21,708 bases of DNA from Stentor roeselii (lineage: Eukaryota; Ciliophora; Heterotrichea; Heterotrichida; Stentoridae): positions 1 through 21,708 of the forward strand of contig RSEH01000418.1 in the NCBI GenBank assembly GCA_006503475.1, written 5' to 3'. This document shows, in pieces, positions 1-20,772 of the stretch. A program made the translations under genes and the position numbers. Every line of letters starts with the position of its first letter. Positions within the stretch are counted from its first letter, which is position 1. Below the pieces are notes generated by a model, which saw only the letters and a list, made by a program, of their open reading frames with translations, had not been told where the DNA came from and ran no database searches.

Positions 1-1079
1 TTGCATTTTTTCAGATATTTTCTAAGTTTACTAGAAGATTAGCTTTGTGCCTGTTATTTGTTCTAAAAGGTGTCTATTATCAATTTTTTATTAGGATTCC
101 TGATTAAAAATTATAATAATTATTGAATTTCTGGATTCAATCTTAAATCAATACTTTTAATAGCTAAATAATATGTATGAGTATTGGCTTATCTAAGGTT
201 TTTATTTGTTTGATCTTATTTTTTAACCTTTGAATTTGGCTATTTTTGAAATAGATGAAGTATTACCCAAGTAATTATTTCTGAAGTTTTTCTTATATTA
301 TACAATGATTTTAAGGAAACAGTATTGAAAGATAAAAAAACCAAAAATTTAGTTTAATTAACTACTTCTATTATTTTTGACTGTAGGGATTTTTATAGAG
401 TTTGATAATATAAAAAAGTATTTTACAAATTAAATACTTCTTTCTATAATCAACATTCACCAATCTATAGTATTATTTCCTATATCTATTTAATACTATC
501 AACATGATCACCTTTTCAGCTGAATAGTGTTGGTTCAATTTAGTCTTAAAGTATTTACCTATTCAAGGTTTAATCACAACTTAGAATTTTTCTCATTTAG
601 GCCTTCTTTTGAAGCCACCCGGACTGTTTATCTAAAGATATTCACTCGTCAAATATCCCAAATTATAAATTATTCGATAACTTCAAACTTGCATCTGATA
701 AATGAATAGATTTTAGATTTATCTCATCTAAAACTTTACTGTCGATTAATTAAGAGTTTCTTATGTAAATTTTTTATGATATGTTTATTATGAAATAGAT
801 AAATTCAAGAAATTAGTCTACAAAAAATGGATTGAATCAAGTCATTATTAATCAACAATTTCATTATGAAAATGATTAAAATCAAATTAATTATAATAAA
901 CGATAGGCCTTTTAACTACTCGTTCTATTGATCTTTCTTAGAAGCAAAGCCAAGATCTGAATTCTTCAATATGAATAACCTGCATTCTTCTTTACTATTT
1001 GACTAGTTTATGTTGTATAAAAGTAGAGTCAAACAGTAAATATTGCATTCAAAATTTTAATAAATCCTTAAATTGCAGA
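1..1079. other. Gene-poor AT-rich region, no supported gene
   Basis: No reading frame here has a recognisable domain. The longest frame, on the plus strand at 527-709 (60 codons), matches nothing I know. On the minus strand the stretch around 500-720 reads as a coding-like frame containing the string SPGGFKRRPK broken by several stops, which could be another gene relic, but I cannot assign it. The right end of this stretch (about 900-1079) may contain the fully eroded C-terminal part of the phosphatase relic that follows. No tRNA-like cloverleaf or tandem repeat was seen. Confidence 0.5.
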
Positions 1080-1625
1080 TTTTTGTGAACTCGATTCCAA
1101 TATTAGAAAATGATCAAATGGATTAAACATTTCTGTCTTGAGTGTACCAGTAGCCTCCCATGATTATTAAAAGAGACAATCAATTTGAGTAAATTGGATT
1201 TTGAATTCTTGAATGATGTCTTTTTAAAAAGTTTCACCAGATCCTGGAGAAGAATTTACCCATCATCAAGGGAAATAACAGGTCGAGGAAGACCTTTTTG
1301 GAGACAAAGACTTGGTTTTCCACAAGAGCTGCCACTGTTAGATTATCGAATAAGTCGCTTAAATACCTCTACACCACAGAGTTTCCTTACTTTGTAAGAC
1401 ATTCATCATAGAATCCATAATGATCGAGATGCGAGAAGGTAAACTTAATAACCTCTTGTAAGTGTTCTGCGGTTTCTCTATCGGACTTTTAGACCATTAG
1501 TGTGAATGTCTCGATTTAATGATGCCCAGTGTTTGAATGGTTTCCTGTAAATAAATTGTTTGCTTTGGTGGCTTTCCTCAGATTTGTATTTCAATTGAAT
1601 TTAAGAGTAATTCTGGATTTTCGCA
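1080..1625 (-). pseudogene. PP2A-type Ser/Thr phosphatase catalytic subunit, decayed
   Basis: Read on the minus strand, this is a clear relic of a PPP-family (PP2A/PP4/PP6-like) catalytic subunit. Around 1398-1418 it encodes YGFYDEC, followed by LTK, a stop, GNSVV, a stop, RYLSDLFDN and then ALVENQVF. This is collinear with the family block YGFYDEC..KYGN..VW.Y..DLFD.LP..ALV..QIF. About 40 codons upstream, at 1531-1555, lies LFTGNH, where the family has the metal-binding LFLGDYVDRG. After a frameshift, CLQKGLPRPVISLDDG matches the CLHGGLSP..DTLD block, and at about 1134-1160 GGYWYTQD matches GAGYTFGQD. In-frame stops replace the conserved Tyr and Trp, there are at least two frame changes, and catalytic Asp, Asn and His residues are gone, so it cannot make an active phosphatase. 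The family assignment is firm; the exact ends are not. Confidence 0.88.
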
Positions 1626-2190
1626 GATACTAATACTCGAGTTTAACTCGTTGCACATTTACTCTGATGAATAAATTAATTTAAATTAGATGATCTTTAG
1701 CTCATTAGTTTCTTCGAGAAAATATCAATACTAACTTTAAGGCTTTTTTTAATTTTTACCACTAAAAAGCTAATACTTATATTAATCTTCTACTTATAAT
1801 CCATTATATATCTGTGTCTATCATTTTTATATTTGATCTACGATTTTAGTCTTAAAATGGCAGCTTCAAAGTTACTCACCGGACAGCTGATTATCTCAAT
1901 TAGACGATTATTTCTCTTTTTTTTTTTGATATTCAATTAGTTACTTTGATTTGGGTTGTTTTTAATTATCATAATCAACTTAAAGGCTTTTTATGGGAAA
2001 ACCAAACATTCTCTTACTCTAAGACGAAATCAACATAAATTTTATTAATTATTTTATGCACAAGCCTGATACTTGAATAGGCTTTTACTAGAGCAAGCAA
2101 GATTATAACTTAAAAAACTAATCCTAGTTTTAAACTAATAATCATCCTGAAATCTATTCTATTAATTTCCACAAAGACTTTTTGCAAATT
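1626..2190. other. Intergenic AT-rich DNA between two decayed genes
   Basis: Bases nearest 1626-1700 probably hold the eroded N-terminal part of the phosphatase relic. A fragment reading SISICENPE with a downstream IEIQI resembles the TVCGDIHG..DLLELF block, with the metal-binding residues lost. A T-run of about 15 bases lies near 1915-1930. Nothing else is recognisable. Confidence 0.4.
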
Positions 2191-3020
2191 CTATCTTAGA
2201 AATATTATCTTTCCTATAAAAGTTTCTAATACATTTAAAAACAGTACTTTAGACTTTAGAAAATTTGGTCTAAAAAGAGCTATCACTGCAGATTTGTTAA
2301 TTTCAGAAGGTTTCCTTATATTTTTCATATTCATAATAACTCGATTTAAATAAAAGGCTTGACGAGTAGCTATTGAAGAATCTTCTAAATTAAAAGCAAG
2401 ATCACTGTTATATTTATAAAATCTACATGGTTTAAATTCACAAATCTTAAAACAGCCTTTTTATTAATTCCTTCACAAATAAACCCTTTTCATTTATTTC
2501 AAGATCAAAAATGAGGCTATGATACTTCTTTGCTATTTAAATGTTTACCTCTCTGATAGCATGAACAATTCACTGATTGCACAAGATCTACGACTTCAAA
2601 AGCATTAAAAACTTCTACTTTATTCAACCCATTAAGGCTAATATTACCTTTATGATAATTAACCTTTATCCCTTCCTTTTCGATTGAAAGCATGTCAAAT
2701 AGTTGCTCTCTCATTATCTTGATAATGCTGAAGTTATATGAAAAGCTTTACCTAAATTTCTAAAAATTTGGTAGATTGATCTATTCAAAATTCCTGGAAC
2801 TTCTGAATTTCCATGAAAAGTAAAACTTTACCTGAATTCGGAGGGCCGTACATGATAATTGTTGAACTTATCCCTGAGTCTAAATCTTGCAATATCGGAG
2901 AAATTGAGTTGAAGACTTCATCAATTGTTGATGTTTTAGGGAAGATTTTAGGAATTCTGAAAATTTCGATGCTAGGAATTTATATTGTATTGTTGATTGG
3001 CTCTGGTAATTCGTTTTCTT
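2191..3020 (-). pseudogene. Kinesin motor-domain gene, decayed
   Basis: Several blocks of a kinesin motor appear in the correct order on the minus strand. The first is a FxFD-like stretch followed by STIDEVFNSISPILQDLDSG, and then MYGPPNSGK at about 2827-2850, which stands where kinesins have the P-loop AYGQTGSGKT. Next come PGILNRSIYQIF (family GIIPR...IF), REQLFDMLS (family YNEQ..DLL) and NISLNGLNKVEVFNAFEVVDLVQ, which fits the G.YV.GL.EV.V.S.EEV..L. block. A switch-I/II region reading LNSKEVS and LRFVNLNHVDF (family NLVDLAGSE) is broken by stops. The relic ends with PNFLKSKVLFLNVLETFIG, matching IPYR.SKLT.LL.DSLGG. There are several in-frame stops and at least one frameshift, and the P-loop Thr is replaced by Val. 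The 'plvq..l.G' spacing resembles kinesin-14, but the subclass is uncertain. The open stretch 2517-2714 is only a surviving piece of it. Confidence 0.85.
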
Positions 3021-3634
3021 GAAGATTTGAACTGAGTAAAAGTTTTATAAGAAGATATGAAGAGATGGGAAAATTCATAAAGATTATTATATTGAAGAAT
3101 AAAGTAACTATTTTAATCAAAATTATCTCAATCATTTTAAATTAAACATCTAAGATTTCAAGAATAATTTGATGATCCCTTTTATATCATATAAAGCAAG
3201 TCAAAATATAAGGAACTGCTGAATTTTTCAAATAGGATATTTGATAATCAGGCTAAAAAAAATTCTAAAGGCACTCAAAAACTTTTTTTTTGATCATCAT
3301 TTAAATTACTTTAAATTTTATTATAGATTAAATATTTCAAATAATTACTAATGTTGATATATAGTAAAGATTTGCATATGTATTATTGAAGCTATAGTAA
3401 AATAAAAATTCTGAGCTAAAACTAGGAAAATGCTGAATGATTTCTACAACTATTTCCGATTCTTATTTTTAATTATAAGAGATAGAAAATCATGATTTCT
3501 CAAGTTATACAAAAAATAAAGAATTTTCGGGAAGATTGTTCTTCATCTTTTCCTTGATGTGTCTACATTAAAAAAAAAAAATGATGTCTATATTTAAAAT
3601 GCTGTATATATGGTATGTGATAAAAGTTTATAAA
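3021..3634. other. Intergenic AT-rich region upstream of the kelch gene
   Basis: No gene or repeat was recognised. The left end may include the fully eroded N-terminal region of the kinesin relic. An A-run of about 11 bases (3571-3581) sits just before the kelch reading frame. It may belong to that gene's promoter or leader, but this is only a positional argument. Confidence 0.4.
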
Positions 3635-4864
3635 ATGTCAAATAGCTGTTATTTTTCTGGTTGTAATGAATTAGTCATATCAGGTTGCTCTTGTTCTCCT
3701 ACTATCTTTATGTGCGAAACTCATTCTGTAAATCACTTATTTTCCTATGGAAAGCATAATCCAAAAAAGAAATTCATCAAAAGTGAAGAAAATCAAAAAA
3801 ATTCTCTGATAGATTCTCTTGTTAGAAATAAAAAAATACTGTGTGAAAATATAAAAAAACTAAAAAATTATACAAACCAGATAATTAATAGAATCATATT
3901 TGAATCAAATATAATGTTAAAGGAAATGGTTAATCAAAATGAATTTTTAAATCAAAATTTAAAAATTCTTATGAAAAAATCTCTTGTGGATATAGAAATT
4001 TTTGAAAAATCGAACATTTCAAAAAGCAATCTTGTTAAGCCATGGACTATATCCACTTTATATTTTGAAAAAAGTATCAAGAAACTTTTCAATTTATATT
4101 CAATTAAGGTCTCTGAGTGTGATGATAATTTCGCTTTTTATTTTGATACTTCAATAACTAGGAATGTGCATTTGGTTGATTTAAATAGTTTTAAAAAGCA
4201 AACAATAGATATACAGCTCAATGATATGCTAGCATACTGTATGTGTTGTAAGGTAGATGATGGGAAGTATTTTGTATATGGAGGTCACAGTCCAATTATC
4301 TCATCTGCAAAATTAATTGATATAAAAAATAAAACAACGATAATTCTTCCATCAGATACTCCAAATTATGTTGTTGGGGGTTGCTTGTTTAATGAAGACA
4401 TTTATATCTTCGGTGGTAATAATGGAAGTGGTTACTTGGTTAATTGTAAAAAATATAATTTGAAACATAAAACCTGGAATCCTATTCAATCTTTTCCAGA
4501 ACCTATTGGGCATACAAGTGCTCATTATTAAAATAGTTGTATCTACACAACAGGGTATAATACCACAAAGGTTTACAAATACGATCCGATAGAAAACAAG
4601 TACTCATTTTTGAAGTATCCACTTAATCCCAATACATATAAGTATATAGTTCAAAATTTCGTGGTATGTTTTGGTTCATTTTTATACGAACTTGATCAAA
4701 ATGAAAATTTGATAAACAGGCAGGCATTTTCAGATTCTGGAGATACCTTATGTTCTTCAGCATTTTTTAAAAAAGGAAAATTTCTGTATTTTTTGGTTTA
4801 TACTCCAAAGCTCTATAGAATATCCTTAGAATCAAAGAAAATAGAATTAGTTAGTTTTAGCTAA
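3635..4864 (+). CDS. Zinc-finger/coiled-coil/kelch-repeat protein, interrupted by one in-frame TAA
   Basis: This is a full-length-looking gene of 409 codons broken once, by TAA at 4529-4531. The N-terminus has a B-box-like Cys/His pattern at residues 5-34 (C-x4-C-x7-C-x-C-x6-C-x2-H-x3-H), followed by a Lys/Glu/Asn-rich helical stretch (about 45-135) and then kelch-type repeats. Three signatures are visible: KYFVYGGHS, a VVGGCLFNEDIYIFGGN repeat, and HTSAHY, stop, NSCIYTTGYN with VYKYDPIENKY. The stop falls inside a kelch blade and the frame continues intact for 111 codons, so TAA stands where a codon such as CAA (Gln) is expected. The methionine at 3635 is preferred over 3581 because the 18 extra residues precede the Cys motif and look non-conserved. 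It is either a young pseudogene or makes a truncated product of 298 residues; other genes here use TAA as a normal stop. Kelch propellers usually bind proteins; no specific role is inferable. Confidence 0.7.
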
Positions 4865-5114
4865 AGTCATAATTTCTTATATTGGAAGGATCTCTCCTTT
4901 AAACTCTTGCATTATTGAGAAAACAAAGCGCCAGTATTTTTTATTTAGGATAACAAAATAACCTACTTTATGGATTTTTTATAGGTCATTAGTTGATATA
5001 AGAACTTAATATTTTTATTTGTATGTATTATAATAATATAAGTGAAAGATAATTTAACTCCGTAAATTCACTTAGTGATTTTTTAATGTATTTTTCATTT
5101 ACTTAATAGTTAAT

Positions 5115-5815
5115 TCATAATCTAACTTGAATATTCCATATAAGAATATCATTATAACTGATTTGATAAACAAAATATTTATTTTCATCACTTATCCATA
5201 TTTTCCTAATATAACTTAGATATTGACCTAAAACTGCAGTCAACTGTTTAGTCCTGACATTAAAAACTCAGAATTTTTTATCATATCCACCAGAGGCAGC
5301 TAATTGAGAATCTTTGCAAAAATTCACACAAGTATCTGTACCATGATGTGCTTTGATTTTAAATTTTTGAATACAATTCGGAATATCCCTTAAAATAGCA
5401 TTCCCATCTTCATCTCCTTATATTCCATGGATTTCATTCTGAGATATATCAGTACAATAAACTGAAGTCTTGTGACCTTTCAAGAATCAAATTATTGATA
5501 AGGTTTTTAGATTCCATAAATTAGGTTTTTTCCTCATCATTTGAGGAACTAAGAAAATAATTTTAAAGTAAGAGAAATACTAAAAGTACTTATAGAATTG
5601 TCTCTTTAAAACTATATGATTTTCATAGTTTGTATTATTAGAGATAAAAATATCTTCTTATTACCAAAAATTGTTAAATTATTGATAATAAATCTGGATT
5701 CACTCCTATACCTTTTTTATTCCAAAAATGAATCAAATGAAGTAGAAGATATTTTAATTATACATATCTTATCATCATTTCCTCCTGAAAACAGTAAAAC
5801 TTGAAAGTTTTAACA
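5115..5815 (-). pseudogene. WD40-repeat protein gene, decayed
   Basis: The minus strand encodes consecutive WD40 units. A first blade has SGGNDDKICIIK (about 5760-5790). A second has SSSNDEEKT and, after a frame change, NLWNLKTLSII. A third reads FLKGHKTSVYCTDIS, then GDEDGNAI. A fourth reads KAHHGTDTCVNFCKDSQLAASGGYDKKF, written here as separate motifs, then VFNVRTKQL. A last blade, IWISDENKYFVY, ends IWNIQVRL before a TGA at 5115-5117. Internal stops in the main frame are TGA at 5268-5270 (exactly where the WD-repeat Trp belongs), TAA at 5418-5420 and TGA at 5487-5489. A further TAA lies at 5717-5719 in another frame, so at least one frameshift has occurred. The N-terminus may extend toward 6000, but I cannot follow it. 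WD40 propellers are protein-interaction scaffolds; the exact family is unknown. Confidence 0.8.
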
Positions 5816-6619
5816 CAAAATACAAAACTAGTAAGAAAACAAAATATATGGTGATTGATATTCAGCTCTTATTTGATTGTTTCAAATGTACTAAATTTTT
5901 TCTTAGTCTGATTGAATAAAAATGAGCTTTTCGCTGGAAAAAGGCGATGAATTCAACTTATTGTTATTAAGCTTCAAGTGAGAATCCTTCCTTCTTTTCC
6001 AAACGTTGCATTCTTTAATGTTAACACCCTTAGACCCACTGATCAGAAATCCGTCAAATGAAAAGCCAGAGATAGGATCGTCTTTGAATGAATTTGTAGG
6101 ATTAGTTCAAAATAAGCAAGAACAAATTATTCTCAGTGAAAATTTCTACGAGGGTAAATTAGTGAACTTTGCACTTAATTCTTATTATTTCAAAAGTGCA
6201 ACAGGAATGAAGTTTGCAGGTCTAGAATATTGGAGAAAGTTTTAAATAGGCAGATTATTTTAATGGTCGTGACTGATGAACCATTTGTGAGGAACCACTG
6301 TTGGCTGAGAAAGCAAAATATAGACTTGGTCCTGAAATGCAGGCAAAGATTAAATTCTGATTGCTTGGACTGGAGTTACAGAGAATAATTTAACAGTTTT
6401 TTTAGCCTGTTCCTTAAAGTTTGCCACCTGGATTAAAAGCTAGCAAGCAAACTGCTAGTCAATGACTTACTAAACGGACCCTTTAGTGATTCTTTTATAT
6501 TCCGATAATGATGTCTTTGTATGAGCTTGTGATTTAATTTTTTGGAGAGATCACAACTGACTTTACATGATACATGATTGCCTATTGTGAAGTCTCCTTT
6601 AGAATCTAGTATATTAATG
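5816..6619. other. Region with coding-like fragments, no assigned gene
   Basis: A plus-strand frame at 6006-6245 (79 codons) has protein-like composition, ending ATGMKFAGLEYWRKF. Beyond its stop, a second frame at about 6285-6355 reads PLLAEKAKYRLGPEMQAKI, and a third at about 6365-6430 reads TGVTENNLTVFLACSLKF. The succession of coherent fragments in different frames suggests another frameshifted, decayed gene on the plus strand, but I do not recognise its family. GC content is locally a little higher than in the flanks. It could also be chance open frame. Confidence 0.35.
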
Positions 6620-7620
6620 ATATCTATTTGCTCAGAACATAATCATCCATGTACTTTCTACTGAGATGTTTGAACTTTTCATAAGTTTTTTTGCACTTCT
6701 CTCAGTTTTTTTTCTCAAGGATTGGATTTTTCCTGTCTATCAAAGAATCTCTCTGAGCTGAATTCATGATTTTAAGTTGTACATAAACTTCAATAAGAAT
6801 CCGTACTTATTTGGATCTTGAATGTCAAAATAATGAATAGAAATTCTGACGTAAAGTGATGATCAAAGATCACTGCTCTAAGAAACATGTTGTCCAAGAA
6901 AGGCTGAACCATTACCTGCTGAGCAGCTAACTATTTACATCGTTTATGGTAAAGAGGAATATAAGGCCATGACTAGAATAAGTATGTCGAGTTCATCCCG
7001 AATCAATAGTTCATTGCTGATGATAATCTATCAAAAAGCCACCAGTTGTTTCAAATGAGAAATAGTATCAATATGGCTTATTTTATTATCTTCCAGTGAA
7101 ACTATTGAAGAAACTAGTAATTTAGCTTTTGGTATTTTTTAGATGATTATTTGAATTTTGTTTTGATTCGTTCCCATATCTGAGGATATCAGAATATCGT
7201 AATTTTAAAGTTTTAGAATTACAGAATCTTTCTTTACGGATCATTTGAAAGATTTTGAATTCTAGAGATTTTAATTCGAAAAAATTTAATTTTAAGAAGA
7301 TTTCAACATTTGTTTTCTGAAGTAGATTCATTAAAAATACCTCCCCAAATGATATAAAGAAATTATTTGAATTTGGATCTTATTGAATTTTAGAAACCAA
7401 AGAGTCTAGTACTAAACTTCCTATTGATTGATATAGTATATTACATGGATAGTTTCTTAATTTCCTCATAAGGTTTCAAAAATCTAATAATTCTGATTGA
7501 TTTAACCTTACAATAATCTTCAATAATACTCTTCATTAGAACTTTGTCTATTGTTCTTGGTATTTACAATTTCTTTATATGCTTAAATAATTTAGTGTAA
7601 ATTATAATAACTTTTATAGC
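6620..7620 (-). pseudogene. Probable leucine-rich-repeat gene, decayed
   Basis: On the minus strand several coherent segments follow one another with stops and frame changes between them. The first is an upstream part at about 7440-7610 containing IPRTIDKVLMKSIIEDY. The second is a longer open stretch at 7122-7400, broken by one TAA, with FFELKSLEFKIF and KTLKLRYSDILRYG. The third, at 7031-7097, reads SLEDNKISHIDTISHLKQL, which fits the SDS22-like LRR pattern L.L.dN.Is.i..is.L..L. Lys-rich coding-like sequence continues down to about 6620. The LRR call rests mainly on that last repeat and on the Leu spacing in the middle segment. The gene is clearly not intact. The extent and subfamily are uncertain, and an unrelated Leu-rich protein cannot be excluded. 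Confidence 0.45.
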
Positions 7621-7810
7621 ATATAAGCTATTTTTAAGAAAGAAGCACTTCTCTGTTTATCAAATATATTGAATGTATTTTTACTAAATTTAAAAGATTA
7701 ATTACTTTATATATTATACATTCTGCTCTGAATTAGGTATAGACTCCATCATAAAGTCTATAAAATTTCATTTTCTAAGGCTGGCTTTATGCAATTTTTT
7801 GAATTTCTTA

Positions 7811-7931
7811 GAAATAAACTAAAAGTTGGTCTTTGAAATAGCAAATAATTGTGTCTTATTTCTGCTCATAGTTTATTTGAACTTGAATGATAGATATGCA
7901 ATTTTAAATCAAAAATTAGTTTATTTCAAAG
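7811..7931. repeat. Cluster of short inverted repeats
   Basis: AAATAAACTA at 7812-7821 reappears inverted as TAGTTTATTT at 7869-7878 and again at 7917-7926. CTTTGAAATA at 7831-7840 is matched by its exact reverse complement at 7922-7931. The arms can form alternative stems. Beyond them, aaggctggc (about 7779) and ggccttaa (about 7971) suggest longer imperfect arms with an indel of about 12 bases. This could be an eroded palindromic element or chance in AT-rich DNA. The rest of 7621-8130 shows nothing recognisable. Confidence 0.35.
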
Positions 7932-8130
7932 TTTTTGTAATGCTGTAAAAACTATAATTCTATAGCTGGCCTTAATCTTGATATATTTTGAAATTTAGCT
8001 TATTGATAATAATATAAAGATTATTCATGATATAGAAAATGATTCTTTCATCAATGTTTCGTCAAAAGTCTCTAATTAATTATAAAAACTATAAAAAATA
8101 TAATTATTTAAAATCAGCTAAGATATCATT

Positions 8131-8228
8131 ATGAATCAGACTAAGAATCAATTAAAATTGGATTTCAATAAGATATTTTATGAATCAGACTAAGAATCAA
8201 TTAAAATTGGACCTCAATAAGATATTTT
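8131..8228. repeat. 49-bp tandem duplication, two copies plus partial flanks
   Basis: Two directly adjacent 49-bp copies (8131-8179 and 8180-8228) begin ATGAATCAGACTAAGAATC and differ at only two positions (tt versus cc near the middle). Degenerate partial copies flank them: AAGATATCATT before, and GTGAATCA after, at about 8234-8241. Each unit contains the palindrome CAATTAAAATTG. The array ends 76 bp before the start codon of the WD40 gene, so it may lie in its promoter or leader region. The near identity implies a recent duplication. Confidence 0.85.
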
Positions 8229-8304
8229 ATCATGTGAATCAAATCCTAATCGATTTAGTTTCCCATTTCATTTAACTTTTATTATATAGTACATAATAAT
8301 AAAT

Positions 8305-10272
8305 ATGATGACGTCAGAAAAAAAGAAATACAAATGTGTTTGTCAAACAGGAACTATAAACGCTTCGAAACTCAAATATCATTTACTAAACCCACAATAT
8401 CATATTATTCAACAAGTAAAATATAGAAAACCTCTGAATCAAATCACTAAAATTGAACAAAGAATAAAATTTATTAAGTCATCAAGAATTCAGCTAACTG
8501 AAACAAATCAAAAAATAATTCAATGTATTAAAACCTTATTTATTAGAAAAATAAAACAGCTTTCCCTAAATTATAATATAAAATACAGAAATCGAAACTC
8601 AAAACATTCAGATATTGACAAACATATTAAATTATTATATAATAATCATACTATAAGACTCATAACAAACTTTAAGTACCTCAAACAAAAAATTCATCAA
8701 AGTGTCAATATATTTATTAAATCTCATTTGTCTGGAATAAGCTCAATGTCCATTCAAGAAAATTTAAATATTCTGGTTTGTGGTGGCTTCGACGGAACTG
8801 TTCGCTTTTTCAGCCTTGAAGGTCTATCTCAAATAGCAGCCTTTTGTTGCCATGAATCAGCTATCAAGGCAATCGATACCAAATCAAACCATTGCATAAC
8901 TGGCTCTGATGATTCAAAAATATGTTTATTCAGCCTTAAAACAAAAAAACTTCAAATATGTTTTCAAACATTATACGGATGTATTCTTTCTCTGAAGTTT
9001 TCGGAACTCTCTAATTATTTTGTTAGTGGATCAGAGAATGGATGCATAGGAATATGGAACGTTCAAATGAAAATGCTTTTTTTTCAAATAATTTCAAATC
9101 ATTGTGTTATGTTTGCAAGATTCATCCAAAACGATTGCTTTATAATCTGTTCAACCTTTGAGGGATTTATTAAAAAATTCAAAATACCTCAAAAATATTC
9201 ATTAATTGAAAAACGATATAAAAATTATTTGTTGTGCAGCAGTTTTATAGAAGAAACTGAAATTTTATTAACTGGCCATTTTGATGGATTTATTCAAGTT
9301 TTAAAACAATTTCAACTCTTTAAAACTTTCAAAGCCCATTCAAAGCACATAAAGTCAATAGACTACTGCTTAAAAACTGGAAAATTCATTTCAGGATCTG
9401 ATGATAAAACTGTAAAAGTGTGGAGTCTAGCATCATTTTCACTTCTAACAGTGCTTGATCATGTAAAACAACAAATTGCATGTGTAAAACTCTTCAACAA
9501 TAAAATTTATTCAAGTGGTAATGAAAGCCAGATTGAATATTTCGATCTTTCGTTTCGAAGAGTAATCAAAACAACCTCCCAGAAAAGATTTCATTGTTTT
9601 GTTTTATCTATTTCAATCAAACTGAAAATGATTGTGTATGGAATCGAAAGAGTTTATTTGTATTCTCTTATTTCAAACTCTGATATTCGTTCCAGATCGT
9701 TTGAAAGTGAAGTATCACATTTAGTGTTTTTAAGTTCTTCTATTTTGTGTGGAACTGCAAAAGGGTTTATTTATTGTGTTGATACATCTTTTTTGGAAAT
9801 TAAGAACAAGTATTTCTTTGGATTTTACCCAATTGAATTTGTAAGGGCAACAAAAAATTGGAAAGTGATAAGTTATTCGAATAACAATAAATCATTTGTT
9901 CAAGATTTAAGAAATTCAAAGATTTTATTGACTCATAATCAAAGAATACATGTCGGAAAGTTTAGAGAAAACATTTTTGTTTTTGTGGATTCTGCTTATG
10001 AGGTGTATGTTTCAAATAACTTTAAAAGTATCAGAAAAATCATTAAGGTTTCGAGTTTTCAATTGTTTTGGTTCAGATCTGTGGATTATATTCTTTTGAA
10101 AGATCGGTGTTCAGGTTTTATTATAATAAATATAAAGAGACAGGACTATGAAAAAAAATTAGTAAATTTGAAAGGAGTAAAATATTACATGAATAAAAAA
10201 CGAAAATTTGGTTTGACTGAAACAAGTGTGATTTTATCATCACTTAAATTTAGATGTGGGCTTGTTAACTAA
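8305..10272 (+). CDS. WD40-repeat protein, apparently intact
   Basis: This is a 655-residue open frame ending in TAA. Residues 1-140 are basic and Lys/Asn-rich, with a short Cys/His stretch (C11, C13, H26, H33) that may be a degenerate zinc site. From about residue 140 a WD40 propeller begins. Recognisable blades include VCGGFDGTVRFFSLEG, TGSDDSKICLFSLK, SGSENGCIGIWNVQ, TGHFDGFIQVL and SGSDDKTVKVWSLAS; later blades are more divergent. There is no signal peptide or transmembrane segment. Such propellers act as interaction scaffolds; partner and process cannot be inferred. Its neighbours to the left are decayed genes, one of them another WD40 protein of similar style on the opposite strand, so this may be a surviving member of a lineage-specific family. 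Coding DNA is more AT-rich than in the block beyond 11,956. The start at 8305 gives MM; the second Met is equally possible. Confidence 0.88.
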   Translation: MMTSEKKKYKCVCQTGTINASKLKYHLLNPQYHIIQQVKYRKPLNQITKIEQRIKFIKSSRIQLTETNQKIIQCIKTLFIRKIKQLSLNYNIKYRNRNSKHSDIDKHIKLLYNNHTIRLITNFKYLKQKIHQSVNIFIKSHLSGISSMSIQENLNILVCGGFDGTVRFFSLEGLSQIAAFCCHESAIKAIDTKSNHCITGSDDSKICLFSLKTKKLQICFQTLYGCILSLKFSELSNYFVSGSENGCIGIWNVQMKMLFFQIISNHCVMFARFIQNDCFIICSTFEGFIKKFKIPQKYSLIEKRYKNYLLCSSFIEETEILLTGHFDGFIQVLKQFQLFKTFKAHSKHIKSIDYCLKTGKFISGSDDKTVKVWSLASFSLLTVLDHVKQQIACVKLFNNKIYSSGNESQIEYFDLSFRRVIKTTSQKRFHCFVLSISIKLKMIVYGIERVYLYSLISNSDIRSRSFESEVSHLVFLSSSILCGTAKGFIYCVDTSFLEIKNKYFFGFYPIEFVRATKNWKVISYSNNNKSFVQDLRNSKILLTHNQRIHVGKFRENIFVFVDSAYEVYVSNNFKSIRKIIKVSSFQLFWFRSVDYILLKDRCSGFIIINIKRQDYEKKLVNLKGVKYYMNKKRKFGLTETSVILSSLKFRCGLVN

Positions 10273-11955
10273 GACTTAGTTAGAATAAACAATTTAATAT
10301 ATGATATTTTATCGGAATCCCCTAATTAATCCTTTTTATAAATAAGAAACCGTTGTTTGAATATTAAGATTATAATCCAAACTATATTGAAATTAGATGA
10401 GATAGCATGAATAAATCACATATACCACATTTCTTTCAATTAAATTTTCAGCAACTGAAAAAAAAAATTATACTTAATTATCTCTCTATAATAACCTTAC
10501 AAACTTTCATCAATAATTTCTAAACATTAATTAACTCTTCATTTTCTTACAAAATGAAAGAATCTCTACTCCTTCTCTAAAAAATAAAAATTAGAGCTTC
10601 TTCATTATATTTAATCTAGACATAATCTTAAAACTTTATGTAAATATAATCTAAAGGCATTAAAATCAATCATCTTCAAAGCACCAAAGTTTCGATCTCG
10701 CGAGTTGACAGGAATTAAAATCAAGTTTAATCTTCATTCTGTTTAACTTCCAATAAAGACATTCTTTTCCATTGATTTTTATAATTCTTAAATTCTTAAA
10801 TAGTAATTACGATGATTTCTCTACATAGAACTAAGCATCATTAATGTTGAGCTTCACTAATGAAATCCCTCAGAATTAATGAATGAATCTAAACCAAGCT
10901 TTCTTTATGAGAACCAACTCCCAAGTGTTCCTTTATCGATTAAAAGTCCTGTAATAAGCCGATAATGAAATCAGATTATTTAGCCTTAGAAAAAAATCAG
11001 TTAATTTATAACTTACTAATTGGAAAATAGTTCAAATAATTAAAAAGATTCCTAAGGTAATGATCTTTTTATGTTTGTGGCTTTTACTTTCAGTAAAACT
11101 TGCTTATTGTTTCAATTGGTTGATTAAAATTAAATCTTAATTATCGCTACGAAATAAAACTGTTTAGAAACTTAGAGACAAGACTCATATGAAATCGTTT
11201 AGACCCGAAAGTTTGGAATGAAAGAACTAATAGTTCAAGAGTAAATAAACCATATATTGTATAGATTTAATGAAGAGTTATTAAGGTAGCTTCCTTATGT
11301 TAGAGGAGTGTCAGAAATATTTTCATTCCAAGATTGTTAAAGCGAGAATATATGATATCTTGATGTTTTTTTATTTTAGCATAAAACTATCAGAACTATC
11401 ATGCATCTTAATAACCTCTTTTTCCTTTTCATCTTGCACTTTTATCTTTAAAGTTATGAAGTTTTTCATGAAATAGCTGAATTGCTGTCTTCATGTAGAG
11501 AAATGTTATAGTAATTATCACAATCACGAAAGACCTCAAAGTATTTACCAATTAAAGATAATTAAATATAACTAGAAAACAATTTAAGTAAAAGATATTC
11601 TTGAAATTAGTGTAATGCTCTTGAGTAATACTTCTGGTAGATCATCAGGCACCGATTGATAAAATAAGGAGTTGTAGCTAGATTTGGATATTAAAAGTGA
11701 GTAAACAAATTTATAATGTTTAATCTTCAGTAAATATGCAGATTGTTAATAAAAAACCTCAACTTCGCGAAAAAATGACTAATTTTTAAATTTAGTCAAG
11801 AAGGAAATAAGAGGTATCATATTCTTAGTTTGTTGAATTTGAATATATTTACTAACTGTAGTTGCGGACTAGTGATCAGAAGGTTAATCCTATAATTATT
11901 AAGAAATAATAAGTCTAGTATAATCCCTTTCAGTTATTCCGAAATTTTCCAATAC
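10273..11955. other. 1.7-kb gap, possible trace of a SUMO-protease-like gene
   Basis: There is no intact gene in this gap. On the minus strand at about 10612-10730 a frame reads LILIPVNSRDRNFGALKMID, which resembles the IPVN....HW.L.VID block of Ulp1/SENP (C48) cysteine proteases, with the catalytic His-Trp replaced. Just upstream, in another frame, is KNQWKRM. The similarity is short and the frame soon hits stops, so I treat it as a weak hint of another relic. The remainder (10,760-11,955) shows occasional open stretches, for example a Leu/Phe-rich plus frame at about 11,290-11,460, but no family I can name. No repeats were seen. Confidence 0.35.
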
Positions 11956-13104
11956 TTAAGCATCATCTAAACTAAAATTAAAATCCAGTTCAACTTCCGA
12001 AACATCAGGAAATTTTTTCTCACAGACCTCTTCAGAAAGACAAGAAAATTCTTGAAACATCTGAATCCAAACAACAAGATCATCAACAAAAATGCGATTA
12101 AGCAAAAACCTGGGTTCACTCCTTTCAAAAAGTTTCTTAATCTTCAACAACACCCTAAGTACCGCTTCCTTCCCCTCCTTAAAAACTTTCTGAGTATCAC
12201 TCCAAGCGATTTCAGCAATTTTAAAATTGCGATAAACTCCATAAACCAGAATCCTTCTAAGCACTTTCTTCATCATATCCTCAACTCTCTTGAACTCAAC
12301 CAAACATGAAAGTCCAGGTGAAATTTTATTGATATTTGCAGCAGTTTCACAAGAAAAATCATGAAGAGCTCTAATTTCATAACAAAAGCACAAAATTATT
12401 TCAACCACCAAGAAAAAAGTGGGCCTTTCAAGAGACTTATGCAATAACAAGCTTTTATTTCCAACTTTGACAAGACTTTCAAGAGACAAGGCGTCCATCC
12501 TCTCAACGATCGAAGGAAAATAGTCTTTAAACAGTTCTTTTGTGGAAGTTGTGTCAATCTGCACGTCAAGGTCTTCAAAATACCTGTCAAGGTCCCAGTT
12601 GTTATTTTCTTGTTGAGTTGATAAAACAAGTCTTTCCTCGTTTTCAGTGTTTTCAGGGTCCAGGTCGAATAATTCGAACATTTCTTCAGCTCGGTTCAGA
12701 AAAAATCCTTTTTCTTTGTGGTTGAAGCCGTAGCCTTCGGAGAGGATGTTGTCTTCTGAAAGGTCTGAATTAGAAACTTCTTCAATCAGTGGAATTCGGA
12801 TTGAGGAGGGCTTCGGCTGCATCAGGGTTGAAATCAAGGAAAGGTCTGGAAAATGCTCTCCTGGCGTTTTCTTTGGAAGGGTTAAAATCAGCTCTCCTTT
12901 TAAAGGGTTGTATTCGATTTTTTCGCTTCCGTCGGATTTCAGCTCGCATGGAAAAGTCAGTCGCAGGTGGTATGGCCGGAGGTAGAAGAAAAAGGAAGTT
13001 TCTTGGATGTCTACTTCTATTGATTTGATTTTAGCGTATTTGATTAGGATTGTCAGTTTTAGTGAGGTTTCTGACTGGTCTAGCCAGAACCGAGGAGTGA
13101 TCAT
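11956..13104 (-). CDS. SHQ1: SHQ1, H/ACA RNP assembly chaperone
   Basis: SHQ1 binds the pseudouridine synthase dyskerin/Cbf5 before it joins H/ACA ribonucleoproteins. The 382-residue product starts MITPRFWLDQ, matching the conserved MITP.F start of SHQ1, and continues with a CS-like beta-sandwich (about 1-90). That domain has the hallmark FYLRPYHLRLTFP and, downstream, the segment KGELILTLPKKTPGEHFPDL. An acidic linker (about 110-180) leads to the helical SHQ1-specific domain (about 180-345). The C-terminus is short and acidic. The protein is shorter than yeast SHQ1 (about 500 residues). The start is fixed by the family match and the stop is TAA. It is the last of five minus-strand genes; the next gene upstream lies 627 bp away, across a tandem repeat. 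Open frames on the plus strand opposite it are antisense shadows. Confidence 0.9.
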   Translation of the reverse strand: MITPRFWLDQSETSLKLTILIKYAKIKSIEVDIQETSFFFYLRPYHLRLTFPCELKSDGSEKIEYNPLKGELILTLPKKTPGEHFPDLSLISTLMQPKPSSIRIPLIEEVSNSDLSEDNILSEGYGFNHKEKGFFLNRAEEMFELFDLDPENTENEERLVLSTQQENNNWDLDRYFEDLDVQIDTTSTKELFKDYFPSIVERMDALSLESLVKVGNKSLLLHKSLERPTFFLVVEIILCFCYEIRALHDFSCETAANINKISPGLSCLVEFKRVEDMMKKVLRRILVYGVYRNFKIAEIAWSDTQKVFKEGKEAVLRVLLKIKKLFERSEPRFLLNRIFVDDLVVWIQMFQEFSCLSEEVCEKKFPDVSEVELDFNFSLDDA

Positions 13105-13244
13105 TATAAATGTCGAGGAGTTGAAATGATGCTGGATGGGATTTTAGAGTTGAATGATTGTTGATGAGTGAAATAAGAATGATTTTTTTGAGGTTTATTT
13201 GAATTTCTAGATAAATAAAGAATGAATTGATTTGCGGTTTATAT

Positions 13245-13576: not shown

Positions 13577-13731
13577 GAAACTCAATGTAAATTTTTCTTC
13601 TTTTAAGTATCATACTAAATCTAATCAAATCCTCTAAAACAATCCCTTATCAACCCAATACCCCCAACCTTTAAAACCATTAAACCTAAAAAATCTCTTA
13701 AACTCTTCAAAACCCTCAAAACCCATAAAAA

Positions 13732-16320
13732 TTATTTCAATAACTTGACTAAAAACTGATTTTCTTCTGAAAACTTTGAAAACTGTTCAACTTTCTCCCT
13801 AATCCCAATTTCTTCGGCGATTTGAATCAAATTTCCCGTTCCAGTTCGAGTGACTTGGATCAAAATAAAAAGCGCCTGAGCCAAAAACTCAAAAGCCTGT
13901 TCAAAATCCGAAGCAACAGCAACTATTCCAAGACATCCACTAGAAAAACTCGTATAAGGCAAGAAAGCAACTCCTTCATTATTGCTTAAATTAAACAAAA
14001 CATTCTCAATCCTGCACATATGAAACAAAGAAATGACTTTTTGTCCAATCAAGTCTTCATGAAAAACAAGAGGAGTCCAAACCCAGACTCGCTTTTCTTT
14101 CTCTTCTTGCATATTTTCCAGAGACCTCTTCGAAAAATCTTCAAAAACAACGAAATTCGAGTTTTCGTCAATGTAAACTTCTTGCTCGAATTCAGAAAAT
14201 TCTTGCTTCGCAACGAAAAGTTCACCGTCATTTTCCAGGCCATTCACGAGACGCCTGATAAAAACATTGATAAAAAGTGAGGAATTTGCTTCAATCTCAA
14301 AGTCAATCAACCCTGCTCCACAGAACTTCGCAGAAAGATACCCAAAAACATTCAAAGAATAAAGAAATCCAGCTAAAACCTTTAAATTTTCAGTGATTTC
14401 CAAATGTTTCAGAATTTTCTGAGGAAAAATAAAAGACTTGTAAACTTTTCCTCGCTCTTCAACAAAAACTGACTCTTGAAGCTTTCCTTCAGGGTCAACC
14501 AGAAAAGAACAAAAGACAACTTCTTCAAAAACAGCCTGAATCAAGACCCTTTGAAAGCCAGTCCAAGGCAGTTCATCCCATTCAGCATCCTCCAAAAAGA
14601 CCTTCCATTCACAAACCTCTTGATTTCCTTTTTTAACTTCTTCAAACTTTTCCGAAAACTCTTGAAAATTCCAGTTTCCAGAAGTTCCGGGTACGATTTT
14701 CAAGCCACTTTTTTTTAACACTTCCCAACGAGTGATTTTTGAAAATTTTTGAAAAGTGCTGGACATGCATCCGAAAATCGGGATTTTTAAAAAGTCGCCG
14801 ATGTACTCGTCGAACTCGTTGGTTTGGAAAGGGACGTAAACAGTTTTTTCGCTTCTTGTCGCTCTTTTGAGCTGGACCAGGTCGTGAGAGGACAGGTAAA
14901 GGGCTTTGGAAGTGTCGTTCATTGGGTTGCGGCAGAGGGTGTAAGGACAGATGAAGTCCAGGCGCCCTTTGTGAGGGATTTTTAAGATGTCTAGAAGAAA
15001 TTCGTAGTAGTTTATTATTTCCAGGTCGATGTATTGAAGAGTTATGTATTTTATTTTTATCTCTGGAAATGACAGGAGAAATAATCGGAATATCTCTGAA
15101 TTTGGAGGAGTTGGAAAAGATGGCATGTTGCTCCCGATGTGGATTTCTACACGGGTTTTGAGGAAAATAGACCAGTTTAACTTCAGCCATTCTTGTCTTT
15201 CGGAGAATTTGTTTGAACGGTCTTCTCGAAGCTTTGCTGCGAAGTTTTTGGTGTAGAGTTTTTTTTTGTATTTTTTGTATTGGACTTCGATTATTCTGAC
15301 CTTTGATTTTTCAAGCCGATGTCTTCTCATCCTGGCAGCTCCTTTGAACCTTCTCCACATGCACTGTATCTTCAAAGCAGCTTGAGCTCTAAGTCTTTTA
15401 AGATTTTCCGCATCTTCAAAACTTCTGACAACATCCAAAACATCATCTTTATTCTCAACAAGTAAAAGTGCATCATTCATACAACAGCATCCTTTATCAA
15501 CTTCCAAATTTTCACTTAAAACAAAAATTTCATCAATTCCATATTTTTTTGAAGCCGTCTCCAAAAATCCTAAAATTTCCAAAACCCTTCGATTTTGACA
15601 GTCTTTCAAAAACTCTTCAAAATCTTCATTTGTAACAATTTTTCCATCTTTTATCAAAATTTTGCAAGTTTTTTTCAAGTTTTCTTCAACTTTTGCAACA
15701 ACAGAAAGTTTTTTCTGAATAACTGGCTCGGAAAATATAAAATTTAGTTTTTTCTTCTTGGAATTGCAAGGAATCTTCAAAGGTTCTAATTGGATTGAAG
15801 AGTTGTGAAGCAAGGCCTTGCTGTGCATTAGAGGCGGATTTTCTTTACTTAAAGAGTCGAAGATTTCTGAGTGTTTTGAGAGAAGTCCTAAGTTCACTAG
15901 ACTGTAAATTCCTTTTTGTAGGTCTTCTTCGGTTAGGAGCACTGGGTTCGTTATTGGGTCTACTCGGGTTGCTTTTGGAAGGATTTTTGGACGGCAGTGG
16001 AAAAGTTTTAACTTTGACTTGGTTTTTGATTTCTGACTGGATTTCGTGGACGTTGGAAGATTGAAATACTTTTCCAAAAACTCAATTTCTTTAACACTAC
16101 CAGGTTGAAGAGACTTAAAAACCCTGGACAATTTATTTTTTTTATCCCCTCTCCTCGGAGTTAAAGGAGGAAGTTCCTCCATCAAAGAGTTATTCCTTCT
16201 AGCACTTCTAAATTTTAAAGGAGTCTGATTAAAACTTAAATTAGAAATCCTTGTATCCAGTCCCGAAAGTTTTCCCTTAAGCTGATCAATAGTCTTAACA
16301 TCAGATCTTTTTCCTTTCAT
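13732..16320 (-). CDS. IQCH-like protein (IQ motif plus ATP-grasp-like region)
   Basis: The 862-residue product resembles IQ domain-containing protein H, a protein of motile cilia and sperm that binds calmodulin through its IQ motif. The N-terminal third is basic and low-complexity (about 1-120). An IQ motif lies at about 314-332, reading AALKIQCMWRRFKGAARMRR. The following 500 residues carry the IQCH-typical body: SSHDLVQLKRATRSE, IPIFGCMSS and a GLKIVPGT stretch, then a region that resembles the ATP-grasp fold of this family. No membrane segment or signal peptide is present. The stop is TAA. The gap to the kinase gene upstream is only 67 bp, on the same strand. A ciliary role fits a ciliate, but is inferred from the family. 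The IQ motif is certain; the orthology to IQCH is likely rather than proven. Confidence 0.75.
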   Translation of the reverse strand: MKGKRSDVKTIDQLKGKLSGLDTRISNLSFNQTPLKFRSARRNNSLMEELPPLTPRRGDKKNKLSRVFKSLQPGSVKEIEFLEKYFNLPTSTKSSQKSKTKSKLKLFHCRPKILPKATRVDPITNPVLLTEEDLQKGIYSLVNLGLLSKHSEIFDSLSKENPPLMHSKALLHNSSIQLEPLKIPCNSKKKKLNFIFSEPVIQKKLSVVAKVEENLKKTCKILIKDGKIVTNEDFEEFLKDCQNRRVLEILGFLETASKKYGIDEIFVLSENLEVDKGCCCMNDALLLVENKDDVLDVVRSFEDAENLKRLRAQAALKIQCMWRRFKGAARMRRHRLEKSKVRIIEVQYKKYKKKLYTKNFAAKLREDRSNKFSERQEWLKLNWSIFLKTRVEIHIGSNMPSFPTPPNSEIFRLFLLSFPEIKIKYITLQYIDLEIINYYEFLLDILKIPHKGRLDFICPYTLCRNPMNDTSKALYLSSHDLVQLKRATRSEKTVYVPFQTNEFDEYIGDFLKIPIFGCMSSTFQKFSKITRWEVLKKSGLKIVPGTSGNWNFQEFSEKFEEVKKGNQEVCEWKVFLEDAEWDELPWTGFQRVLIQAVFEEVVFCSFLVDPEGKLQESVFVEERGKVYKSFIFPQKILKHLEITENLKVLAGFLYSLNVFGYLSAKFCGAGLIDFEIEANSSLFINVFIRRLVNGLENDGELFVAKQEFSEFEQEVYIDENSNFVVFEDFSKRSLENMQEEKEKRVWVWTPLVFHEDLIGQKVISLFHMCRIENVLFNLSNNEGVAFLPYTSFSSGCLGIVAVASDFEQAFEFLAQALFILIQVTRTGTGNLIQIAEEIGIREKVEQFSKFSEENQFLVKLLK

Positions 16321-16387
16321 AATATAACCTAAAAATCAATCCTTCTAAAAAATTAACCAATTAAATCAATCCTCATCTCTAAACTTT

Positions 16388-17803
16388 TCATCCCTTAATA
16401 GCTGTATCAGCATTCCTCAATTTCAACAACAAATTCTTCGCATTCTGATTAATATTTCTCCTTTGTTCCTCATTAACCGCCTTGAAACCTTCAACCTGTC
16501 CACTAAACCCATGATGATTTCCTCTCATTTTATTCATCCTTTTCATAAGTTCCGCAGAAATTCCAGCATTTTTCTCCTGAGGCGATTTGACAGGTTCAAT
16601 ATTTCTGCTTTTTTCAGGAAAAGCCAAAGTAAGCCAAGGATGTTTCAGCGCATGTTTCGCGGAAGGTCGATTTTCCGGGTCAGACTCAGTGAGTCTTAAA
16701 ACACAATCAATTCCTTCCCTTGACACATGTTTCCAATACTTATCCTGAAAGTAAATCTTGCATTCTTTATTCCTGATCAAGATCTCATTAGTAGTCTTCC
16801 CAGCGAAAGGGGCGCGACCACTGAGCAGTACATACAAAATGACCCCAGCACTGAAAATATCGCATTTTTTTCCATAATTCCTCTTTTTCAATATCTCAGG
16901 CGCGACATACCCAGGAGATCCACATCTTTGAACACAGTCTTCTTTACATTCAGCAGCAAGTCCAAAGTCAGCGATTTTAAACAAAACGTCATTTTCCCAA
17001 CTTTCCATCAAAATATTCTCAGGTTTCAAATCACGATGGACGTAATGATTTGAATGGATGAAGTCAACAGCTTGAAGCAGGTTTCGCATGAAAAATGCGG
17101 AGTTTTCTTCAGAGTAACTATTTTTCATCTGAATTCTTTGAAACAAGTCGCCTCCTCGCATGTAGTCCAGAATTAAATGGACTGATTCAGAGGTTTCATA
17201 GACTTTGTGAAGTTTTATTAGAAAAGGATGGGTCAACTTTCGCATTATTTTTATTTCTGAGATCAGAGCTGATGTCGAGCGAGAACTCGCCAGAATCGCT
17301 TGCTTTGATATCGACTTTACCGCGAATTCTTGTTGAGAGTCACTTTCATGTGCAAGAAATACTTTTGCGTAGTTGCCTCTTCCGATTTCTTTGATTATTG
17401 TAAAGTCTTCTTCTAAGTCACTTAGAAGGACGAATGGCGATAAAGCGTCCAGCCAGGATTCGAGATCTTTTGATGATGTCAGGTAAAAGTCTTGGAAAAT
17501 TCCTCGTTGAGTTAGACGGAAACCGAATCTTTTGTCTTCGTCGTTTTCCTCGCTGAAGGCTTCGAGACGTTTCCAGTAAAGATCGACTACTTGATTTGGG
17601 GATGATTTTTTTTTTAGGTATAACTTTCCGGGGGTTAAATGAAGGGTTTTCTTTTTATTTTTTCCAGAAGAATCAAAAAAATTTATGACTCCGGATTTCA
17701 AGGTTTTTTGGTCACAGTCTTGAAACGCAGATTCATCAACATTTTTCCAAAAAAAATCACTGGGATTACATTCAAAGTCAGCTTGCTCAAACAAAGAAGC
17801 CAT
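16388..17803 (-). CDS. PH-domain protein kinase, CAMK type
   Basis: This is a 471-residue Ser/Thr kinase. A pleckstrin-homology domain occupies about 35-125 (GVINFFDSSG at its start, WLDALSPF in the C-terminal helix), followed by a kinase domain at about 134-392. All catalytic landmarks are present: glycine loop GRGNYAKV (141-148), AVK lysine 163, alpha-C glutamate 183, HRDLKPEN (256-263), DFG (279-281) and APE (301-303). The CDIFSAGVILYVLLSGRAPF segment and the overall order point to the CAMK group. The enzyme should be active and may be recruited to membrane phosphoinositides by the PH domain. The C-terminal tail (about 400-471) is basic with no EF hands, so it is not a classical CDPK. The stop is TGA. 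Tight spacing to both neighbours (67 and 83 bp) leaves little room for regulatory DNA. Confidence 0.92.
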   Translation of the reverse strand: MASLFEQADFECNPSDFFWKNVDESAFQDCDQKTLKSGVINFFDSSGKNKKKTLHLTPGKLYLKKKSSPNQVVDLYWKRLEAFSEENDEDKRFGFRLTQRGIFQDFYLTSSKDLESWLDALSPFVLLSDLEEDFTIIKEIGRGNYAKVFLAHESDSQQEFAVKSISKQAILASSRSTSALISEIKIMRKLTHPFLIKLHKVYETSESVHLILDYMRGGDLFQRIQMKNSYSEENSAFFMRNLLQAVDFIHSNHYVHRDLKPENILMESWENDVLFKIADFGLAAECKEDCVQRCGSPGYVAPEILKKRNYGKKCDIFSAGVILYVLLSGRAPFAGKTTNEILIRNKECKIYFQDKYWKHVSREGIDCVLRLTESDPENRPSAKHALKHPWLTLAFPEKSRNIEPVKSPQEKNAGISAELMKRMNKMRGNHHGFSGQVEGFKAVNEEQRRNINQNAKNLLLKLRNADTAIKG

Positions 17804-17886
17804 TTATTATATTACTCTCGAAAAAATGCGTTTTAAAAATCCTTCAACCCTTCAATAAAAAACCATTTATAAAGTAAAGGAAAAGT

Positions 17887-18732: not shown

Positions 18733-18849
18733 GGAAACGCTTTTATAAGGGAATATGGAGTTTTGAGATTAATCAGTTTAATAGTGCACCTCTATAACAT
18801 TAAACTATTCATTATCAAGATACTAAACCTCTAAACCACTTTTGGCACA

Positions 18850-19839: not shown

Positions 19840-19848
19840 TTATATTGA
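19840..19848. promoter_or_regulatory. 9-bp divergent start-to-start spacer
   Basis: Only TTATATTGA separates the start codon of the membrane-protein gene (19837-19839, minus) from the ATG of the taxilin gene (19849, plus). Any promoter for either gene must sit inside the other's coding region, or the leaders must be nearly absent. If taxilin starts instead at the later ATG (19975), the gap would be 135 bp. Confidence 0.55.
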
Positions 19849-20745: not shown

Positions 20746-20772
20746 TTTAGCCTTTGTAAGACTCTGGTAATA

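What the first reader, a model, noticed from the sequence alone, without database searches (positions are those of the whole stretch)
1..11955. Graveyard of decayed conserved genes next to a compact intact gene block
At least three recognisable eukaryotic genes (PP2A-type phosphatase, kinesin motor, WD40 protein), and probably an LRR gene, lie here broken by stops and frameshifts, while every gene to the right of 11,956 is intact with gaps mostly under 120 bp. Gene-dense ciliate somatic genomes are not expected to carry 12 kb of such relics. The left part could be germline-limited DNA removed during macronuclear development, a subtelomeric decay zone, or a region of relaxed selection after segmental duplication. 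The relics and compaction are seen in the sequence; the cause is inference.
Basis: partly seen in the sequence, partly recalled or inferred. Interest (0 to 1): 0.7.

Follow-up and report, generated by a model that had tools for sequence, protein, structure and literature searches.

The report
Decaying chromosome-end zone in a ciliate
The left half of this ciliate contig is a patchwork of DNA segments shared with the ends of many other contigs, where copied genes are kept or fall to pieces, next to an ordinary tightly packed block of working genes.

Summary
The window is a whole 21,708-bp contig (C369) of a 44.4-Mb ciliate assembly with CCCTAACA telomeres. Its left 12 kb (27% GC) holds real relics: a PP2A catalytic subunit, a kinesin-like motor and an antisense WD40 gene. 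The right block (36% GC, 89% coding) is intact and essentially single-copy. Two corrections: the left part also contains an intact 655-aa WD40 gene (8305-10272) under purifying selection, and a kelch gene broken by one TAA. No LRR gene was found.

Nearly all of 1-11,946 is multicopy; its copies lie mainly at contig ends, a few telomere-capped. DNA from the terminal 6.4 kb of capped contig C56 recurs at 29 contig ends, 26 in the same orientation. The PP2A relic carries the same premature stop in three copies: it was dead before it was copied. Flanks collect indels about 15-60 times faster, per substitution, than WD40 coding sequence.

Best explanation: a subtelomere-like zone of the somatic genome, built by segmental exchange between chromosome ends, where gene families are born and die. 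Germline-limited DNA is not supported. No telomere lies on this contig, and WD40 enrichment at capped ends alone is not significant, so repeat islands that break the assembly remain a rival.

The parts
1..261 (.). Multicopy end segment; also on C86 8.35 kb inside a telomere-capped end, and on C127, C220, C384, C114
   Evidence: positions; telomere caps of C384 start and C86 end
259..1660 (.). Duplicated segment: C499 end (86.7%) and C31 start (85.5%)
1303..1560 (-). PP2A catalytic-subunit relic; one premature TAA shared by all three copies
1681..3981 (.). Duplicated segment, 90.3% identical to C31:2928-5215, 26 indels of which 2 are multiples of 3
2194..2979 (-). Kinesin-like motor relic (2788-2979 by direct match, the rest by eye); open or less broken kin at C31 (210 aa), C169 (324 aa), C90 (303 aa), C288 (312 aa)
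3635..4864 (+). Kelch-repeat gene, nearly intact, single in-frame TAA at 4529-4531
5092..5851 (.). Duplicated segment in C31 (88%), also inverted at C31:439-1161 (82%)
5130..5522 (-). WD40 relic
5848..6862 (.). Duplicated segment: C380 (85%), C114 (88-95%)
6862..8300 (.). Degenerate flank shared with C54 and C157
8305..10272 (+). Intact 655-aa WD40-repeat gene of a large, contig-end-enriched family
10421..11946 (.). Degenerate multicopy flank shared with C410, C54, C43 and others (about 72%); no recognisable gene
11956..13104 (-). First core gene: SHQ1-like, intact, start of single-copy DNA
13732..21579 (.). Rest of the compact core block: 862-aa ORF (no Pfam match), protein kinase, RING-finger protein, 329-aa ORF (no Pfam match), taxilin, Bin3-type methyltransferase
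19883..19897 (+). 15-nt GT-AG intron in the taxilin gene

Best explanation
Positions 1 to about 11,950 are a subtelomere-like end domain of a somatic (macronuclear) chromosome of a heterotrich ciliate; 11,956 onward is the single-copy core. Shown: the left part is a mosaic of segments shared with many other contig ends. Shown: its WD40 gene is under selection while neighbouring segments decay without frame constraint. Inferred: exchange or duplication between non-homologous chromosome ends, in the germline where changes are inherited, keeps copying these segments, relics included. Inferred: gene families at the ends expand, diverge and die, and selection keeps only some copies.
For: Almost the whole left part has copies elsewhere; in the right block the longest other match is 0.63 kb at 68%, in the kinase gene, besides a 158-bp overlap with C289. 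On contigs of at least 60 kb, 19 of 24 match clusters of 6000-11,955 lie within 10 kb of a contig end (4.2 expected), and 9 of 16 for 1-6000 (2.5 expected). Control: 27 of 67 WD40 rows lie within 10 kb of a contig start, against 6 of 122 kinesin rows (Fisher p 2e-9). Telomere links: WD40 family sequence near capped ends C56, C254, C464 and C384; window 7-261 at 8.35 kb from the capped end of C86. C56:80-6460 matches 29 contig ends within 10 kb, 26 in the same orientation (p 1.5e-5), and 18 of 18 on contigs of at least 40 kb; window 1-6000 gives 10 of 12 (p 0.04) and 10,421-11,946 gives 6 of 6. The same DNA lies directly beside the telomere of C476 (76% over 532 bp). C48's telomere-adjacent DNA matches C380:1434-1930 (72%), 0.5 kb from the C380 segment shared with the window. 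Birth and death: one premature stop shared by three PP2A relic copies; indels per substitution 0.003-0.008 in intact WD40 coding sequence (3 copies) versus 0.09-0.20 in flanks; dN/dS 0.47-0.60 in 10 of 10 pairs of 5 open copies.
Against: C369 itself carries no telomere repeat. Of 42 listed capped ends only 2 have a WD40 row within 10 kb (0.63 expected, p 0.13), so the enrichment rests mainly on uncapped contig ends. Within about 0.5-0.8 kb of the telomere, 21 of 25 capped ends show no similarity to another capped end (C86 contributed only about 50 bases, and C48 is one of the 21 although it matches C380). Three of 29 ends break the orientation rule for C56 DNA (C477, C373, C308, all on contigs under 35 kb). 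The WD40 gene itself has no preferred orientation to the end (12 of 29). Some copies are internal, such as C7, C64, C165 and C228.
Confidence: 0.73

Rival explanations
1. Interspersed repeat islands: the left part is one of many multicopy, gene-poor islands inside chromosomes, and it lies at contig ends because assemblies break in repeats.
For: Most contig ends with matches are uncapped: 18 of the 20 ends fetched carry no telomere repeat. Some matches start exactly at a contig end. Some islands are internal, such as C64 and C228. Capped ends alone give no significant WD40 enrichment. A composite repeat that always breaks on one side could also give a fixed orientation.
Against: Orientation to the end is kept at 26 of 29 ends for C56 terminal DNA, 18 of 18 on contigs of at least 40 kb, and at 10 of 12 for window 1-6000. 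Two capped ends share telomere-adjacent DNA in the same orientation (C56 and C476), and so do C330 and C9, which a composite repeat does not predict. Many matches lie 2-9 kb inside the end rather than at the break.
Confidence: 0.18
2. Germline-limited DNA (an unexcised internal eliminated sequence or contaminating micronuclear DNA) joined to somatic DNA at about 11,950.
For: AT-rich, gene-poor and relic-rich. Ciliates do remove such DNA (PMC7599177, passages read).
Against: Related segments lie within 1-9 kb of CCCTAACA caps. The WD40 coding sequence is under selection. No contig was found with an excised form.
Confidence: 0.06
3. Assembly or sequencing errors made intact genes look broken.
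For: Most indels are 1 bp.
Against: In the same assembly three intact WD40 coding sequences differ from the window's by 329-387 substitutions but only 1-3 indels. Relic copies share a stop codon in frame.
Confidence: 0.02

Closest known systems
Tetrahymena thermophila germline subtelomeric and pericentromeric 'genome innovation centers' (LRR genes; PMC6564038, passages read, part of the abstract among them)
   Same: Young, fast-evolving gene families concentrated near chromosome ends; ectopic recombination proposed; higher Ka/Ks there than in arms
   Different: There the ends are germline chromosomes and the family is LRR; here the ends are those of a somatic assembly and the families are WD40, kelch and kinesin-like
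Paramecium surface-antigen genes in subtelomeric regions of macronuclear chromosomes (PMC9788069, passages read)
   Same: Multigene family at somatic chromosome ends, with a pseudogene and alternative ends discussed
   Different: Different proteins; expression of one antigen at a time is discussed there and expression is untested here
Blepharisma stoltei somatic genome (PMC9942806, section 5 and passages read)
   Same: Gene-dense somatic genome of similar size (41 Mb), 15-16-bp introns, CCCTAACA telomeres
   Different: That species reads UGA as tryptophan and has very many alternative telomere addition sites; 'subtelomer' has 0 occurrences in its main text
Paramecium imprecise elimination of germline repeats with chromosome fragmentation (PMC7599177, passages read)
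   Same: Would place repeat-rich DNA next to somatic chromosome ends
   Different: Not testable here without germline sequence

Membership tests
Subtelomeric segmental-duplication domain | Segments shared among the ends of many non-homologous chromosomes | tested here: met
   shared among many contig ends; that each contig end is a chromosome end is inferred
Subtelomeric segmental-duplication domain | Conserved orientation relative to the chromosome end | tested here: met
   26 of 29 for C56 terminal DNA and 10 of 12 for window 1-6000; the WD40 gene alone is not oriented, 12 of 29
Subtelomeric segmental-duplication domain | A telomere at the outer edge of this very domain | tested here: inconclusive
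   none on C369; related segments lie near capped ends C56, C254, C464, C384, C86
Subtelomeric segmental-duplication domain | Enrichment at telomere-capped ends taken alone | tested here: inconclusive
   2 of 42 capped ends have a WD40 row within 10 kb, 0.63 expected, p 0.13
Germline-limited (eliminated) DNA | Absent from the somatic nucleus | not testable with these tools
   no reads; copies near telomere caps argue against it
Pseudogene (PP2A, kinesin-like, antisense WD40) | Homology to a functional gene plus disabling lesions and evolution without frame constraint | tested here: met
   homology is weak for the kinesin-like relic
WD40-repeat protein | WD40 repeats above the Pfam gathering score | tested here: met
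   PF00400, 75.5 bits against a cut-off of 27
Kelch-repeat protein | Kelch motif above the Pfam gathering score | tested here: met
   PF13964, 33 bits against 25.3, read with X at the one TAA
LRR gene | LRR homology at 10.4-12 kb | tested here: not met
   no LRR match in six frames (Pfam); no PDB match for the two of six frames tried
Heterotrich ciliate macronuclear genome | CCCTAACA telomeres, 15-nt introns | tested here: met
   one intron seen; species not named by any search

The most novel reading that the evidence does not exclude
In this heterotrich a class of somatic chromosome ends is fixed and shared: non-homologous chromosomes exchange terminal segments in the germline, so that ends form one recombining pool carrying a large, fast-evolving WD40 family that could be chosen or expressed by position, as subtelomeric antigen families are. 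Somatic ends would then sit at germline subtelomeres or repeat islands rather than at arbitrary breaks.
Probability: 0.25. Interest if true: 0.6.

Novelty: new member of a known kind. Interest (0 to 1): 0.4.

Why it matters
Subtelomeric birth-and-death zones are well known in other eukaryotes and described in other ciliates. Ciliate somatic chromosome ends are healed breaks, so shared, oriented, gene-family-bearing ends in a heterotrich somatic genome bear on where and how germline chromosomes are cut in this class. The finding also identifies a large contig-end-enriched WD40 family under mild purifying selection that can be studied directly.

Tried and rejected
LRR gene at 10.4-12 kb: no profile match in six frames and no PDB match for one frame per strand. 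Non-coding RNA: no Rfam match at gathering scores. Hidden 15-16-nt introns as the cause of stops: rejected from indel lengths and from stops falling on conserved Tyr and Trp positions. Excised form elsewhere in the assembly: none found. WD40 orientation as a marker of the end: no preference, 12 of 29. WD40 enrichment at capped ends only: not significant. A universal telomere-adjacent repeat: not found, 21 of 25 capped ends without a match to another capped end. Naming the species: not achieved; the Stentor genome paper is not held.

Row choices. One search took all non-self rows. One search left rows out (24 of 34, 41 of 51 and 48 of 50 were given) and treated seven contigs of unknown length as if only their start counted. 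One search fetched those lengths and one search repeated the test with all rows: the count for C56 DNA fell from 27 to 26 of 29, because C477 turned out to be short; the other counts did not change. The report uses, and the lead confidence was lowered by 0.01 for it. One search also replaces the 22 of 30 clusters with 29 of 37. One search scores C373 and C384 as exceptions by nearest end. Both carry a telomere at the other end of the contig, which would make them consistent, but the counts are given uncorrected.

Full report
What was given. The window is the whole of contig C369 (21,708 bp) of an unnamed 44.39-Mb assembly of 522 contigs. The assembly carries CCCTAACA telomere arrays at many contig ends (547 exact starts of a three-repeat pattern, 0 for the reversed control pattern), and some contigs are capped at both ends (C40 and C153). 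The same repeat and 15-16-bp introns are reported for Blepharisma (PMC9942806, section 5), and a 15-nt intron is present at 19,883-19,897 in the taxilin gene. The genome is therefore taken to be a heterotrich somatic genome. The kinase ORF ends in TGA and the core genes are complete without in-frame TGA, which points to the standard code; this is modest evidence, because the ORFs were called with TGA as a stop.

The contrast is real. GC is 27.0% in 1-11,955 and 36.5% in 11,956-21,708; intact coding sequence covers 16% of the left part (27% with the kelch gene) and 89% of the right. The right block encodes SHQ1, a protein kinase, a RING protein, taxilin, a Bin3-type methyltransferase and two proteins without a Pfam match at E 1e-4. 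Its right end overlaps the start of C289 (149 of 158 columns identical, one 9-base gap), so C369 probably continues there.

What is broken and what is not. A PP2A catalytic relic, a kinesin-like relic (weak by sequence) and an antisense WD40 relic are present. The kelch gene 3635-4864 has one stop; its nearest match, on C169 (55%), is itself broken by a frame change. On C169 a 324-aa kinesin-like frame and the kelch gene lie in the same opposite-strand arrangement as in the window. The WD40 gene 8305-10272 is intact. Its family gave 68 scored rows in the genome, the window's own included, a lower bound.

Modes of evolution. Between the window and C54, C155 and C157 the WD40 coding sequence shows 329-387 substitutions but only 1-3 indels (0.003-0.008 indels per substitution). 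The flanks of these copies and of C410 show 0.09-0.20, which per copy is about 15 to 60 times more (C155 lowest, C54 highest). The relic segments against C31, C499 and C380 show 0.12-0.19, and 0.05 for the inverted C31 copy. The broken C410 WD40 copy is intermediate, 0.029. In C157 the three indels are 1, 2 and 6 bp and the frame stays open. dN/dS among five open copies is 0.47-0.60 in 10 of 10 pairs, which is selection, but mild. The PP2A relic has a TAA at the same site in the window, C31 and C499, and a TAG shared by the window and C499. The gene was dead before the segment was copied. The nearest intact PP2A match is on C14 (67%, 312-aa frame).

Where the copies are. From 1 to 11,946 almost every stretch has copies elsewhere. 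On contigs of at least 60 kb, 19 of 24 clusters (6000-11,955) and 9 of 16 clusters (1-6000) lie within 10 kb of an end, against 4.2 and 2.5 expected. A control family, kinesins, is not end-enriched: 6 of 122 rows within 10 kb of a contig start, against 27 of 67 WD40 rows and 21 of 58 kelch rows (rows, not genes, so some loci count more than once). Among WD40 rows the closer relatives are the end-enriched ones: 26 of 34 close rows, against 5 of the 15 distant rows whose contig length is known (33 distant rows in all), lie within 10 kb of either end.

Chromosome end or assembly break? This is the main doubt. For the chromosome-end reading: DNA from the terminal 6.4 kb of capped contig C56 is itself multicopy. 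Of its 37 match clusters 29 lie within 10 kb of an end, and 17 of 25 on contigs of at least 60 kb, against 3.9 expected. It keeps its orientation to the end at 26 of 29 ends (p 1.5e-5), 20 of 23 for the outer 1.6 kb alone, and 18 of 18 on contigs of at least 40 kb. C56 and C476, both capped, share telomere-adjacent DNA, as do C330 and C9. C48's telomere-adjacent DNA matches C380 about 0.5 kb from the C380 segment shared with the window. Window 7-261 has a copy 8.35 kb inside the capped end of C86. The 300 bp next to the telomere have 14-40% GC in the 25 capped ends looked at (only about 50 bases for C86), like the left part for the most part.

Against it: C369 has no telomere. Most ends with matches are uncapped: 18 of 20 (read), and 37 of 40 contig starts (not all of these starts are the matching end). 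Only 2 of 42 listed capped ends have a WD40 row within 10 kb (0.63 expected, p 0.13), and 21 of 25 capped ends compared share no telomere-adjacent DNA with another capped end. There are therefore at least two kinds of capped end, and the claim is made for the shared kind.

Literature. Subtelomeric gene innovation is described for Tetrahymena germline chromosomes (PMC6564038, passages) and for Paramecium surface antigens (PMC9788069, passages). A search for heterotrich, subtelomer, Stentor and Blepharisma (at least 3 of 4 terms) gave 30 papers, of which 10 were seen as a listing. Two of these 10 contained 'subtelomer': in the passages read of one it concerns hypotrich nanochromosomes (PMC10946202); the other (PMC10449743) was not opened. 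A second search (subtelomeric, macronuclear chromosome, ciliate, gene family, pseudogene; at least 4 of 5) listed 13 papers, none with a heterotrich in its title. No paper reporting such a zone in a heterotrich was seen in these two searches, which cover open-licence papers only.

Verdict. This is most likely a subtelomere-like mosaic with living and dying gene copies: a known kind of region in a lineage where these searches found no description of one.

Noticed in passing
window 13212-13571: Tandem array with a 37-bp spacing in the one long intergenic gap of the core block.
   Followed up: no
L113 (C56:1-9000), 2831-4489 +: A 553-aa open frame in a 40% GC island between the telomere and the WD40 gene, within otherwise 20-29% GC sequence.
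   Followed up: no
L048 (C31:1-7500), 439-1161 and 5534-6301: The antisense-WD40 relic segment occurs twice in inverted orientation at one contig end.
   Followed up: partly
L007 (C169:56300-60553): A 324-aa open kinesin-like frame with an atypical P-loop (GDSQSCKT) beside a kelch pseudogene: possibly a non-motor kinesin-like family.
   Followed up: no
capped contig ends C330 and C9: Telomere-adjacent DNA 87% identical, but the telomere sits about 340 bp further in on C330: same end sequence, different addition site.
   Followed up: no
window 18850-19839 and 13732-16320: Two intact core ORFs without any Pfam match at E 1e-4.
   Followed up: no
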